This document shows, one piece after another, positions 615-4,510 of a stretch of 5,081 nt of DNA. How positions within the stretch are numbered: position 1 is the stretch's first letter; each line of letters begins with the position of its first letter. The notes under the pieces are model-generated. The model worked only from the letters and a program-made list of their open reading frames with translations. It was not told the origin of the DNA and did no database searches. Source of the stretch: an uncultured Synergistia bacterium (GTDB lineage Bacteria; Eremiobacterota; SpSt-956; JAKJGF01); assembly GCA_937888925.1 (NCBI GenBank), contig CALARM010001081.1, positions 1 to 5,081 on the forward strand, in the 5' to 3' direction. The translations under genes were made by a program, and so were the position numbers.

Positions 615-2132
615 GTGAATAAAAAAAATATTTCAGAAAAAGGTATTGCCGTAATAACAGTGCTGGGAGTATGTCTGGTTTTATTAGGTCTTGGTACTGT
701 TCTTGTAATGGATAGCTATTCTCAAATGAGAAGAGCTTCTAAATATAATTATGATACTGAGGCTCTTATTCTGGCAGAAGCAGGTGTCCAGAGGGCTATT
801 TATGAACTGGAAGAACATGATCTAAGCTGGAGCAATGCAACAGAGGAACTGGGAAATGGAAGTTACACTGTACAGGTAATTGGTGACAATTTAGCAGGGG
901 CTGAGCCAATACCAGCTTCAGGAAGTAATCCTGAGATTCCTGCTAATTCCATATGGTTAAGGTCAACAGGAACAGTTGCGGGAAAGTTTCGTAAGACCGT
1001 CGAGGTAGCTCTCTCTTATCAGATTATATCTCAGGCCGGTTTGAGCAATGCAAAAATGTTGATAGGAGACCCCAATAATCCTTCTTATGGTAATTTTGTC
1101 TTTGAATTGAATGCAATTCCCGGATTTGAAGGAAAACTTCATTCTAATTATAATAACTCTTCCGAACCCAATAATATAGCTTTTGATATTATAGGTGATC
1201 CCAATTTATCCGTACAGGGGGCAACCTTTTCAACACCGGGTACTGTATCAGTTAATGCACAAAATAAGATTTCAAATGCTCATGGTGCAGTAGCTAATTC
1301 TCCAGCAAAAAATATTCCGGAAGTGGTTTATGAAGATGTAGAACCTAACAATACTGTAGAAATAGCTGCCAAGGTGCCTTCCATTGTTGAATTTACAGGA
1401 AAGTTGAAAAATGATGGAGGAGTGCTGAAAGCACAATGTGACACTCCTCTGGGGTCTATGTGGATTCCTTTGAATAATATGTTCGGAGATTTTACTCCTG
1501 ATGGCATGATCTGGGACGGCCCTAACAGTACTATCAGAATCGTTGATAACAAAAAGTATTCTTATACCTGTGATCCAAACGGTTCGAATGCAGTTCTTTC
1601 ATTTACTGATATTAATATTCAGGTTGATCCGAATATAAATACAGGACTGTTTACAAATGGTAATATTGAAGCCAGTAATATGTATCTGAATGCTCCTTTT
1701 TTTACTCTGGCAAGCAAGGGCAGTATTACCTTTAAAGAAACCAGGTTTCGTATAGAGGAACCTACCAATAACAGGGGCGTTGCCATATTTTCAGGGAAAG
1801 ATTTTATTATTGAGACTCCTTCTTCTCCTGTCAAACCACCTCCCACCGGAGGTAATATCTTTAGAGGTGTTATTTATGTGAAAAATGGAAAATTTATACT
1901 TGATAATAAGTCCAATGACATATCTGATAATAATGCCGTAAAAATGGAAGGATTGATACTGGTTCAAAACGGAGATCCAAATACGAATGATGGTATTATA
2001 TTAAAAAATAGTGGCACAAATAGTAATTATAAACTCTCCATTACTTATAATCCACATCTTGCAAGGGTTCTGAATTGCAGTAATTCGAGCGATGTTCAGC
2101 TTCAACCTGTATTCTGGAGGATTGTGCGCTGA
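615..2132 (+). CDS. PilX N-terminal domain-like minor pilin
   Basis: The protein has 505 residues. The GTG start at 615 is chosen because AAGGA (601-605) sits 9 bases upstream and the hydrophobic N-terminus follows at once. Residues 1-10 are a short charged leader ending in EKG. Residues 11-32 (IAVITVLGVC onward) are one hydrophobic helix, followed by an amphipathic stretch with AEAGVQRAIYELE (54-66). This is the PilX_N pattern, with G10 as the plausible prepilin-peptidase site; the Glu usual at mature position 5 is absent. The rest is a large exported beta-rich domain. Residues 412-485 (FRGVIYVKNGKF, EGLILVQNG, ITYNPHLA) resemble the repeated-strand C-terminal region of large PilX-like proteins. 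DPN/EPN turns recur throughout. The likely role is a minor subunit of a type IV pilus or pseudopilus. It is probably co-transcribed with the upstream pseudopilin. The stop is TGA, which matters for interpreting the UGA in the selenoprotein gene. The length is well above that of classical PilX, suggesting an enlarged head domain. Confidence 0.75.
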   Translation: MNKKNISEKGIAVITVLGVCLVLLGLGTVLVMDSYSQMRRASKYNYDTEALILAEAGVQRAIYELEEHDLSWSNATEELGNGSYTVQVIGDNLAGAEPIPASGSNPEIPANSIWLRSTGTVAGKFRKTVEVALSYQIISQAGLSNAKMLIGDPNNPSYGNFVFELNAIPGFEGKLHSNYNNSSEPNNIAFDIIGDPNLSVQGATFSTPGTVSVNAQNKISNAHGAVANSPAKNIPEVVYEDVEPNNTVEIAAKVPSIVEFTGKLKNDGGVLKAQCDTPLGSMWIPLNNMFGDFTPDGMIWDGPNSTIRIVDNKKYSYTCDPNGSNAVLSFTDINIQVDPNINTGLFTNGNIEASNMYLNAPFFTLASKGSITFKETRFRIEEPTNNRGVAIFSGKDFIIETPSSPVKPPPTGGNIFRGVIYVKNGKFILDNKSNDISDNNAVKMEGLILVQNGDPNTNDGIILKNSGTNSNYKLSITYNPHLARVLNCSNSSDVQLQPVFWRIVR

Positions 2133-2400: not shown

Positions 2401-2407
2401 AAGGAGG
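2401..2407 (+). promoter_or_regulatory. Strong Shine-Dalgarno for the selenoprotein gene
   Basis: AAGGAGG, extended to AAGGAGGTGA, lies 8 bases before the ATG at 2416. It is the best ribosome binding site in the window. It argues that the ATG is really used even though conventional reading stops after ten codons. Confidence 0.85.
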
Positions 2408-2415
2408 TGAAATTT

Positions 2416-2634
2416 ATGAATATTACTATTGAATATTGTACTATGTGAAATTATGAACCAAAGGCTTCAGGGTTGAAGTCTGATATAGAGAAGAATTTTC
2501 CCGGTGCAAGTATAAAGCTAATTCCTTCCGGCGGAGGCGTTTTTGAAGTAGTAAAAGACGGAATATTGATTTTTTCCAAAAAATCCCTGGGCAGATTTCC
2601 CCTTCATGATGAAATATTTGCTAATTTGAAATAA
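2416..2634 (+). CDS. SelW-like selenoprotein (Rdx family, CxxU redox motif; in-frame UGA at 2446-2448)
   Basis: Read with UGA as selenocysteine, the gene encodes 72 residues from ATG 2416 to TAA 2632-2634. The N-terminus MNITIEYCTMUNY carries C8-T-M-U11 directly after the first beta strand, the position of the CxxC/CxxU redox motif in the Rdx (SelW/SelT/SelH) thioredoxin-like family. Downstream, GGGVFEV (39-45), DGILIFSK (48-55) and GRFP (59-62) match the family's conserved C-terminal core. The size is typical of bacterial SelW-like proteins. With UGA as a stop, only a ten-residue peptide would be made, although the frame stays conserved for 61 more codons. Support for selenocysteine comes from the strong ribosome binding site, the CxxU placement and a hairpin starting 14 bases after the UGA. 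Known members are small cytosolic thiol or selenol oxidoreductases of uncertain substrate. No strong promoter of its own was found, and it is separated from the pilin operon by a palindromic spacer. Confidence 0.9.
2462..2481 (+). promoter_or_regulatory. Candidate bacterial SECIS element
   Basis: AGGCUUCA (2462-2469) pairs with UGAAGUCU (2474-2481) in eight consecutive pairs, one of them G-U, around a GGGU loop (2470-2473). The first loop G lies 22 bases past the last base of the UGA (2448). That fits the usual placement of bacterial SECIS hairpins, as does a small apical loop with G in its first two positions. It lies inside the coding sequence (codons 16-22), as bacterial SECIS elements do, and would bind SelB carrying Sec-tRNA. 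Three extra pairs (2452-2454 with 2485-2487) could form a lower helix. Confidence 0.75.
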
Positions 2635-2827: not shown

Positions 2828-4462
2828 ATGAAAATAGGATCAAATTATAATCTCCTGGCAGAACAGAAAATAAAGCATACAGGTGTGAAAAGGCAGAGTG
2901 AGGGCGCAGGTTCTCTTGAAGATCTATCCAGAAAAGATATGCTTGTAAGTTATTATCCTCAGGATCCATATGTAGGGAAACCTGTGACTGCATCAATCCC
3001 TGCCGATGATATAACTGCCGGACCTGATAATACAAGAATAGATACAAAAGGTGATGTTAAACCAAATGCAGACGGAAATATGATTTTTGAGCCTGCCGAT
3101 CCTGCCTTTATAAATGTTCAAACCTTTACAAGCACGGAGAAAACAATAGAAATGTTTGAGAAATATCTCGGACGAAAGGTGAAATTCTACGGGAATCGTT
3201 CCAAAATAAGTCTTAATCCCGATAAAGGCGAGATGAGAAATGCTTATTATAGCCGTCAGGATTGTTCCTTAAACTTTTTCCATTTTAAAGATAAGAAAAC
3301 GGGTCAGACTTTACATACAGGAAAATCTGCAGAAATAGTGCAGCATGAAGGAGGACATGCCCTTATTGACGGAACTCAGTCGGGATGGCTGGGATGGAAT
3401 CCTGAAACAATGGCACTTCATGAGGCAGGTGCAGATATGACTGCTCTCGTTACATGTCTTCATGATGATAATAATCTGGAACTCTTCCTGAAGCAAACAG
3501 GGGGAGATTTCAAAAAACCTAATATCCTTGCCAGTATGGGTGAAGAATTCGGTATGTCTGCCTATGGAAGACCATACCTGAGAAATGCCATAAATAATTT
3601 TACTTACAGCCCTCCTGAAAGTTTACCTGATATTCCATCCAGTCCGGATCAGCTTGGCGGTGAAGCTCATTATTTTGCTCCTCTTTTTGTAGGTGCTTTT
3701 TATGATATTCTTGGTGCTGTATTTCACTCTTATGAACAACAGGGACTCGGACAGAAAGAAGCCCTTGTAAAAACAAGAGAAGTAGCAGGTAAACTTCTTG
3801 CAAAAGGTATTGCAGGTGCTCCTCCTTCCAATGCTACATACAAAGATCTTGCTCTGTCAATGATCAAGGTAGATCAGTTGAATGAAAGAGGAAAACATGT
3901 AGATCTTCTTACCGATATATTTAAAGAAAGAAAAATACTTTCCGATGAAGACATTCCTCAACTTTCTGCTCTTGATAATACACGAGCTTATACATTCCTT
4001 AATTCCAGCAGTCCCTTAAATGTAATTGATTTTGTTGATAAAAATAGAGAAATCCTCGGAATAAATCAGGATGTCCCTCTTTCTCTTCAGGAAGTAAATA
4101 AAAATGAAGACGGAAGCGAAAGTTTTAATGTAGGCTTCAATGTGGAAGTTCCTCTTACCGGTTCGGAATACGGAGTATTTGACGGTGCAGTTATAGATGT
4201 ACATGGAGGAGTAACCCTGGGGACAAAAGAGACAGGTCTTCTTGCTTCTGTGGCGCCGGGAATGGTGTCAGATACTGATATAGCAAAAACAAAGGATTAT
4301 ATGAAAAAATTGATAAAAGGCGGCAGGATAAAATTTGTCGATCCTTCCAAAAGATCCCTGAAAGATGAAGATTTCTTTGATAAAGACGGTAAACCTTATA
4401 TGGGATATACGTCTTATGAAGACGGGAAAATGAAGATAGTAAGAAGTCCGATTATAGATTAA
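2828..4462 (+). CDS. Thermolysin-like (gluzincin, M4/M36-type) metalloprotease homologue
   Basis: The protein has 544 residues. ATG 2828 is the first start after an in-frame TAA (2822-2824). The sequence H173-E-G-G-H177 is an HExxH zinc site, and 22 residues later comes LHEAGAD with E199 as the probable third ligand and D203, matching the 'NEaiSD/GEgwSD' helix of M4 and M36 peptidases. A preceding NAYY (138-141) matches the NAFW/NAYW strand of thermolysins. GGEAH281YFAPLFVGAFYDIL resembles the segment carrying thermolysin's transition-state His231. The catalytic set therefore looks intact. Residues 1-90 are polar and low in hydrophobics, with no signal peptide or membrane helix, unlike secreted thermolysins. 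The C-terminal part (about 385-544) is unrecognised. The gene appears monocistronic, with a weak ribosome binding site (CTGGA) and a strong terminator 14 bases after the stop. The substrate is unknown. Assignment to clan MA is firm; the exact family is not. Confidence 0.8.
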   Translation: MKIGSNYNLLAEQKIKHTGVKRQSEGAGSLEDLSRKDMLVSYYPQDPYVGKPVTASIPADDITAGPDNTRIDTKGDVKPNADGNMIFEPADPAFINVQTFTSTEKTIEMFEKYLGRKVKFYGNRSKISLNPDKGEMRNAYYSRQDCSLNFFHFKDKKTGQTLHTGKSAEIVQHEGGHALIDGTQSGWLGWNPETMALHEAGADMTALVTCLHDDNNLELFLKQTGGDFKKPNILASMGEEFGMSAYGRPYLRNAINNFTYSPPESLPDIPSSPDQLGGEAHYFAPLFVGAFYDILGAVFHSYEQQGLGQKEALVKTREVAGKLLAKGIAGAPPSNATYKDLALSMIKVDQLNERGKHVDLLTDIFKERKILSDEDIPQLSALDNTRAYTFLNSSSPLNVIDFVDKNREILGINQDVPLSLQEVNKNEDGSESFNVGFNVEVPLTGSEYGVFDGAVIDVHGGVTLGTKETGLLASVAPGMVSDTDIAKTKDYMKKLIKGGRIKFVDPSKRSLKDEDFFDKDGKPYMGYTSYEDGKMKIVRSPIID

Positions 4463-4475
4463 ATAATAAAATAAT

Positions 4476-4510
4476 AAAAAAGAAGGGGTCTTTAGACCCC
4501 TTCTTTTTTT
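4476..4510. terminator. Strong bidirectional intrinsic terminator
   Basis: AGAAGGGGTC (4481-4490) pairs perfectly with GACCCCTTCT (4495-4504) around a TTTA loop. It is followed by T4505-T4510 on the + strand and flanked by A4476-A4480 on the other side, which gives a T-run on the - strand. It ends the metalloprotease transcript and can equally end a - strand transcript arriving from 4790, as expected between convergent transcription units. Confidence 0.9.

What the first reader, a model, noticed from the sequence alone, without database searches (positions are those of the whole stretch)
2416..2634. Hidden SelW-like selenoprotein gene with in-frame UGA
Conventional translation yields only MNITIEYCTM. 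Reading UGA 2446-2448 as selenocysteine gives a full 72-residue Rdx-family protein with C8-T-M-U11, GGGVFEV and GRFP in the right order and at the right length. The PilX-like gene just upstream ends in UGA, so the genome has not simply reassigned UGA. Seen directly: the reading frame, the motif and the ribosome binding site. From family knowledge: the CxxU site and the conserved core. Inferred: that selenocysteine is actually inserted.
Basis: partly seen in the sequence, partly recalled or inferred. Interest (0 to 1): 0.85.

Follow-up and report, generated by a model that had tools for sequence, protein, structure and literature searches.

The report
Bacterial SelW-like selenoprotein gene
A small gene that looks cut short by a stop codon almost certainly makes a complete 72-residue selenium-containing redox protein of a family already well known in bacteria; it is real and easily mis-annotated, but not a new kind of thing.

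Summary
The finding is real. With UGA 2446-2448 read as a residue, window 2416-2634 encodes a 72-aa Rdx/SelW-like protein (Pfam Rdx 6.4e-20; NF041051 99.1 bits, cut-off 88). All 89 loci returned by two collection scans carry TGA at that codon, although the query bore Cys there. UGA is still a stop: the closest relative (L001, 75% identical, same downstream gene) ends its own selW with a second UGA, and its genome has RF2. That genome has selA, selB with tRNA-Sec at its end, and a selD with an in-frame TGA. A hairpin after the window's UGA meets a published bacterial SECIS model; 4 of 500 synonymous recodings do. Across 84 distinct sequences a six-pair helix, one base out of register with the window's, is 93% paired against 62% for recodings. 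Inferred: that selenocysteine is inserted in this organism, whose genome is not held. SelW-like selenoproteins have been known in bacteria since at least 2005, and Campylobacter SelW is reported made full length. New member of a known kind. Side result: nine viral contigs carry TGA-containing selW.

The parts
2401..2409 (+). Shine-Dalgarno AAGGAGGTG
   Evidence: read directly; L001 has AGGAAGGTGA before its GTG start
2416..2634 (+). selW-like gene, 72 aa with Sec at codon 11, stop TAA
   Evidence: dN 0.17 / dS 1.84 (NG86) against L001
2437..2448 (+). CxxU redox motif: C8 (TGT 2437-2439), T9, M10, U11
   Evidence: a Cys codon (TGC 49, TGT 42) at this place in all 91 genes examined
2446..2448 (+). 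UGA read as selenocysteine (inferred)
   Evidence: TGA at this codon in 89 of 89 related loci; each of the 9 Rdx matches in a 148-genome sample holds one TGA
2462..2481 (+). bacterial SECIS hairpin: 8-bp stem (2462-2469 / 2474-2481), loop GGGU 2470-2473, 21 nt after the UGA, -9.1 kcal/mol
   Evidence: published model read in passages of PMC13188914; helix in relatives, one base out of register
2828..4462 (+). downstream neighbour, 544-aa distant M36-like metallopeptidase homologue; follows selW in L001 too
   Evidence: shared gene order only, no functional link shown
615..2132 (+). upstream 505-aa protein, weakly pilin-assembly-like, ending in TGA; shows UGA used as a stop nearby

Best explanation
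Window 2416-2634 is a SelW-like (Rdx-family) selenoprotein gene of a bacterium known here only from sequence. Translation starts at ATG 2416. At UGA 2446 the SECIS hairpin at 2462-2481 recruits SelB carrying Sec-tRNA(Sec), so that selenocysteine is inserted and translation runs on to TAA 2632. The product is a small thioredoxin-like protein whose C8-x-x-U11 motif does thiol/selenol redox chemistry. Shown here: frame, family, conservation of the UGA, a hairpin that fits the SECIS model, a conserved helix at nearly the same place in relatives, and the Sec genes in the genome of the closest fetched locus. Inferred: Sec insertion in this organism, and the redox function.
For: Family: PF10262 6.4e-20; NF041051 99.1 bits over cut-off 88, and TIGR02174. 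UGA conserved: 89 of 89 loci (80 from genome contigs, the best of 503; 9 from viral contigs); also one TGA in each of 9 Rdx matches, in 6 of 148 genomes of the relative's phylum. Purifying selection: dN 0.17, dS 1.84 against L001, codon 11 left out. UGA still a stop: L001's selW has TGA at codon 11 and TGA as terminator, aligned to the window's TAA; in 46 of 91 selW genes the next stop after the UGA codon is again TGA; RF2 498.3 bits in G001. Sec genes in L001's genome G001: selA 545.8 bits, selB 398 bits, tRNA-Sec 69.3 bits at the 3' end of selB, selD 376.8 bits with an in-frame TGA. SECIS: the window meets the model quoted in PMC13188914; 4 of 500 synonymous recodings do; 59 of 91 genes meet it (58 of the 90 testable against 19.7 expected; 40 of 60 non-redundant against 13.5). 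Helix pairing 92.9% in 84 distinct sequences against 62.5% for recodings (sd 1.7, maximum 66.5% of 200).
Against: The window's own genome is not held, so selA-D were not seen in this organism. L001's own hairpin just misses the energy limit (-7.3 against -7.5), and 32 of 91 genes miss the model. The window and L001 do not share the helix register of the other sequences: at that register they form only 3 of 6 pairs; they pair one base over, with a 4-nt loop. The register was picked from the same sequences on which it was then counted, and the sequences are related. One downstream control (23 against 14.3) and two (mean z -0.34, -0.28) are also over expectation, less strongly. In the phylum sample selA is so common (120 of 148 over cut-off) that its presence in the SelW genomes is weak evidence by itself. 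No expression or mass-spectrometry data.
Confidence: 0.95

Rival explanations
1. UGA is reassigned to tryptophan in this lineage (code 4/25), so residue 11 is Trp.
For: 82 of the 120 listed protein homologues have W at this position.
Against: The 615-2132 gene ends in TGA where five of six aligned relatives end; L001's selW itself ends in TGA; RF2 is present, and a tRNA-Sec with anticodon tca. Trp would destroy the CxxC/U motif of the solved relative Atu0228 (CTQC). W in the databases fits gene calling under a code with TGA=Trp (inferred; their DNA was not seen). A tRNA-Trp(UCA) was not searched for.
Confidence: 0.02
2. UGA is a true stop: the gene is a nonsense pseudogene, or the real product is the 53-aa protein from TTG 2473.
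For: Standard gene finding gives the 53-aa ORF, and 35 of 120 listed homologues start after the UGA.
Against: The stretch before the UGA, with its Cys, and the UGA itself are conserved over 89 loci; the gene is under purifying selection against L001; the truncated form lacks both redox residues; a pseudogene would not be expected to keep a paired, co-varying helix.
Confidence: 0.02
3. UGA is read through inefficiently by a near-cognate tRNA (Cys or Trp) without selenium.
For: The organism's own Sec genes could not be looked for.
Against: The genome of the closest fetched locus, with the same downstream gene, has the Sec genes, and a hairpin fitting the SECIS model follows the UGA.
Confidence: 0.02

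Closest known systems
Bacterial SelW-like selenoprotein family (PF10262, CxxU), PMC1088965 and PMC2398784
   Same: Rdx family, CxxU near the N-terminus, in-frame UGA, hairpin after the UGA; [quoted passage not shown]
   Different: Host lineage and sequence details only, as far as seen
Campylobacter SelW / NCBIfam NF041051 SelT/SelW/SelH family (seleno)protein
   Same: Over the equivalog cut-off (99.1 against 88 bits); for C. jejuni SelW, translation past the UGA is reported from Ribo-seq and proteomics (PMC11955535 passages)
   Different: Another lineage, judged from the named relatives of the neighbour protein; no expression data here
Cys-form Rdx proteins such as Atu0228 (PDB 2fa8)
   Same: Same domain, matched over residues 3-67, E 9.7e-10
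   Different: CxxC in place of CxxU

Membership tests
SelW-like / Rdx family | Match to Rdx (PF10262) over curated cut-off and full length | tested here: met
   71.6 bits against 22.6, residues 2-70, profile 1-71 of 74
SelW-like / Rdx family | N-terminal CxxC or CxxU motif | tested here: met
   C8-T-M-UGA11; Cys codon at 8 in all 91 genes examined
Bacterial selenoprotein | In-frame UGA aligned with Sec or Cys of homologues | tested here: met
   TGA in 89 of 89 loci; Cys in P0012 and PDB 2fa8
Bacterial selenoprotein | bSECIS: 3-9 nt loop with G in the first two bases, 4-16 bp stem, 16-37 nt from UGA, MFE at most -7.5 | tested here: met
   Loop GGGU, 8 bp, 21 nt, -9.1; model from passages of PMC13188914
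Bacterial selenoprotein | selA, selB, selC, selD in the same genome | tested here: inconclusive
   Own genome not held; all four present in the relative's genome G001
Bacterial selenoprotein | Selenium actually incorporated | not testable with these tools
   needs 75Se labelling or mass spectrometry

The most novel reading that the evidence does not exclude
Concerns the relatives rather than the window gene: tailed phages carry SelW-like selenoprotein genes with in-frame UGA and their own SECIS hairpin, without carrying the decoding machinery. They would borrow the host's selenocysteine system during infection and so depend on Sec-decoding hosts. Nine IMG/VR loci (L081-L089) have the gene. L084's copy lies about 1 kb before baseplate-wedge genes, and L088's record holds a T4-type gp23 capsid gene. 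Against: only 2 of the 9 meet the full SECIS model. tRNA-Sec genes in phages are already in print (PMC6145125, PMC10747093 passages). Probability and interest were lowered slightly (from 0.6 and 0.55) after these two facts came out on checking.
Probability: 0.5. Interest if true: 0.5.

Novelty: new member of a known kind. Interest (0 to 1): 0.22.

Why it matters
For the window gene itself the gain is mostly annotation: of 120 listed homologues, 117 are either cut after the UGA or carry Trp there, and the conserved helix after the UGA offers a way to recognise such genes. If the organism could be named it would add a lineage to the list of likely Sec users. If the phage copies are genuine, they would raise a testable question about viruses depending on the host's selenocysteine decoding.

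Tried and rejected
Rfam scan of the window at lax threshold: 12 hits, all below gathering score; 11 lie over the 4480-4510 terminator hairpin and its surroundings, one at 1078-1136; no SECIS family. Folding 65 nt around the UGA gave z -0.02 (95 of 200 shuffles as good); 41 nt from the UGA gave z -1.91 (8 of 200), so the signal is local. Promoter scan: no more than chance. The small upstream ORF (ATG 2253-2402) has no counterpart in the first 1400 nt of L001 (tblastn empty), so it was not made part of the feature. Single-protein scan of viral contigs: 11 stretches, none confirmed; the alignment scan gave 9. tblastn of INPHARED phages: no match. tblastn of plasmids: 12 records, all under 60% identity; their codon 11 was not examined. 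PHROGs: no family for the gene. The window's organism could not be named: homologues of the downstream protein are labelled Candidatus Eremiobacterota, Candidatus Xenobiia and bacterium ADurb.Bin363, whereas L001's record title says Bacillota; no held paper has both 'Eremiobacterota' and 'selenocysteine'. No structure was predicted; relatives are solved.

Rows not seen or dropped: 423 of 503 genome contigs relatives were not returned; 145 of 265 protein hits were not listed. In some searches seven of 98 loci (L093-L096, L098-L100, minus orientation) were skipped, leaving 91 (the window, L001-L089 and L097); the tool itself reports one TGA in each of those seven. One gene was dropped from the null (90 left). 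In one search duplicates and sequences with N were removed (84 left).

Mended on checking: only 2 of 9 viral genes, against 55 of 80 bacterial ones, meet the SECIS model; phage tRNA-Sec genes are already published.

Full report
Observation. Read with UGA as a residue, 2416-2634 gives 72 aa that match Pfam Rdx at 6.4e-20 across the UGA and pass the curated cut-offs of NCBIfam NF041051 and TIGR02174. Mechanical ORF calling finds only a 53-aa TTG-start piece. Databases treat relatives much the same way: of the 120 listed homologues (of 265 found), 35 begin after the UGA, 82 have W at residue 11, one has C, one has S and one could not be placed. That the W forms come from calling genes with TGA=Trp is inference; their DNA was not seen.

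Conservation of the UGA. A profile scan of the genome-contig collection found 503 relatives, of which the best 80 were returned; a scan of IMG/VR found 9. All 89 have TGA at codon 11. The search patterns printed lie downstream of that codon, and the query carried Cys there, so the search did not favour TGA. The 423 unreturned, more distant relatives were not examined, and Cys forms do exist (P0012; PDB 2fa8). Against L001 (75% aa identity), dN is 0.17 and dS 1.84 by NG86 (dS is high enough to be imprecise).

UGA is still a stop. L001's selW has TGA at codon 11 and ends in another TGA exactly where the window has TAA. In 46 of 91 genes the next stop after the UGA codon is again TGA. L001's genome has RF2 at 498.3 bits. 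The window's 615-2132 gene ends in TGA, and five of six aligned relatives end at the same column or one residue off.

Machinery. The window's own genome is not held. L001 has the same next gene: selW, then the M36-like protein, whose reading is that of P0126, 64% identical to the window's. Its genome G001 has selA, selB, a tRNA-Sec that starts within the last 8 nt of the selB frame, and a selD with its own TGA, in the motif SKAAG*ASK. In a sample of 148 genomes of G001's phylum, 6 have an Rdx gene, with 9 matches, each holding one TGA. All 6 have selA and tRNA-Sec over cut-off. But 120 and 109 of the 148 have those anyway, so this co-occurrence discriminates little. selD was searched in 5 of the 6 (not G029), and the best match in each holds one TGA. 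selB was searched in G001 only among bacterial genomes.

SECIS. The review PMC13188914 (passages only) gives a bacterial model: 3-9 nt loop, 4-16 bp stem, G in the first two loop bases, 16-37 nt from the UGA, MFE at most -7.5 kcal/mol. The window has loop GGGU, 8 bp, 21 nt and -9.1. Four of 500 synonymous recodings reach that. Of 91 genes, 59 meet the model; of the 90 testable, 58 do against 19.7 expected (sd 3.4), and of 60 non-redundant genes 40 do against 13.5 (sd 2.8). Positions further down the same genes gave 31 against 27.8, 23 against 14.3 and 11 against 13.2; the second of these is over expectation too. Split by source, 55 of 80 bacterial and 2 of 9 viral loci meet the model, besides the window and L097. 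A mean-energy test points the same way: z -0.95 after the UGA; -0.34, -0.28 and -0.03 further down, the first two of which are also slightly below zero. Counted without choosing sequences by structure, a six-pair helix in one register is 92.9% paired in 84 distinct sequences. Synonymous recodings give 62.5% (maximum 66.5% of 200), and the twelve other registers tried give 23-55%. The register itself had been picked from these sequences. Pair 20-32 occurs as C-G, U-A, U-G, G-C, A-U and G-U (5 of 84 unpaired), pair 21-31 as G-C, U-A, C-G, U-G and G-U (14 of 84 unpaired). The sequences are related, so these are not independent events. The window and L001 form only 3 of the 6 pairs in that register; they use the neighbouring one with a 4-nt loop, and L001 misses the energy limit by 0.2. 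In the six hairpin codons, window and L001 share five, differing only at GGG/GGT in the loop.

Mechanism. SelB bound to the hairpin delivers Sec-tRNA(Sec) at the UGA; the product is a thioredoxin-like CxxU protein. The SelB step is established knowledge of the bacterial system, recalled and in passages of PMC4607533. The redox role rests on the family literature (PMC1088965 passages: conserved CXXU, reported interaction with glutathione), not on data here.

What is known. [quoted passage not shown] passages). In Epsilonproteobacteria, SelW genes in particular were noted as completely missed by annotation (PMC4607533 passages). C. jejuni SelW is reported full length from Ribo-seq and proteomics (PMC11955535 passages). 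[quoted passage not shown] The window is therefore a new member of a known kind.

Side result. Nine IMG/VR loci carry the gene. In L084 it lies about 1 kb before genes matching phage baseplate-wedge families (7.2e-26 and 1.1e-18). L088's record has a T4-type gp23 capsid gene (2.2e-76). L082 has a thymidylate synthase and a PhoH-like protein of phage families. In the helix, pairs 20-32 and 23-29 change on both sides among the nine, at synonymous sites, but L084 and L085 break pair 20-32. Only L086 and L089 meet the full SECIS model. None of the 9 records has selB or a tRNA-Sec over cut-off, but records may be fragments. Terminase_6N was found in none of the 9, gp23 in one of 9; for the records without such evidence the viral origin rests on the collection's label. 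Four paper searches listed no title on a phage selenoprotein gene; of the papers listed, three were looked into by passages besides PMC9402790. PMC6145125 and PMC10747093 report tRNA-Sec genes in phages, and the latter suggests that such phages can encode Sec proteins; PMC9784644 has the word only in a reference. PMC9402790 passages say that protein families other than those it names have few or no viral sequences in GOS.

Noticed in passing
L081-L089 (IMG/VR); L084:5001-5198, L088:5001-5201, L082:5001-5198: SelW-like genes with in-frame TGA on nine viral contigs; L084's is about 1 kb before baseplate-wedge genes, L088's record has a gp23 capsid gene. No selB and no tRNA-Sec over cut-off in the records; 2 of 9 meet the SECIS model.
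   Followed up: partly
window 2828-4462: 544-aa protein with an HEGGH stretch and distant M36 metallopeptidase relatives; of three family members scanned only P0134 passes the Pfam M36 cut-off. It follows selW in L001 as well.
   Followed up: partly
L120: selD of the relative's genome has an in-frame TGA (SKAAG*ASK), as have the best selD matches of four more genomes.
   Followed up: partly
protein P0059: A full-length homologue with Ser at the Sec position (IEYCTASNY); whether it is real or made by a gene caller was not checked.
   Followed up: no
L001 record title: The record is labelled Bacillota, although its downstream protein reads as P0126, which a source names from bacterium ADurb.Bin363, with relatives labelled Candidatus Eremiobacterota; the label may be wrong.
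   Followed up: no
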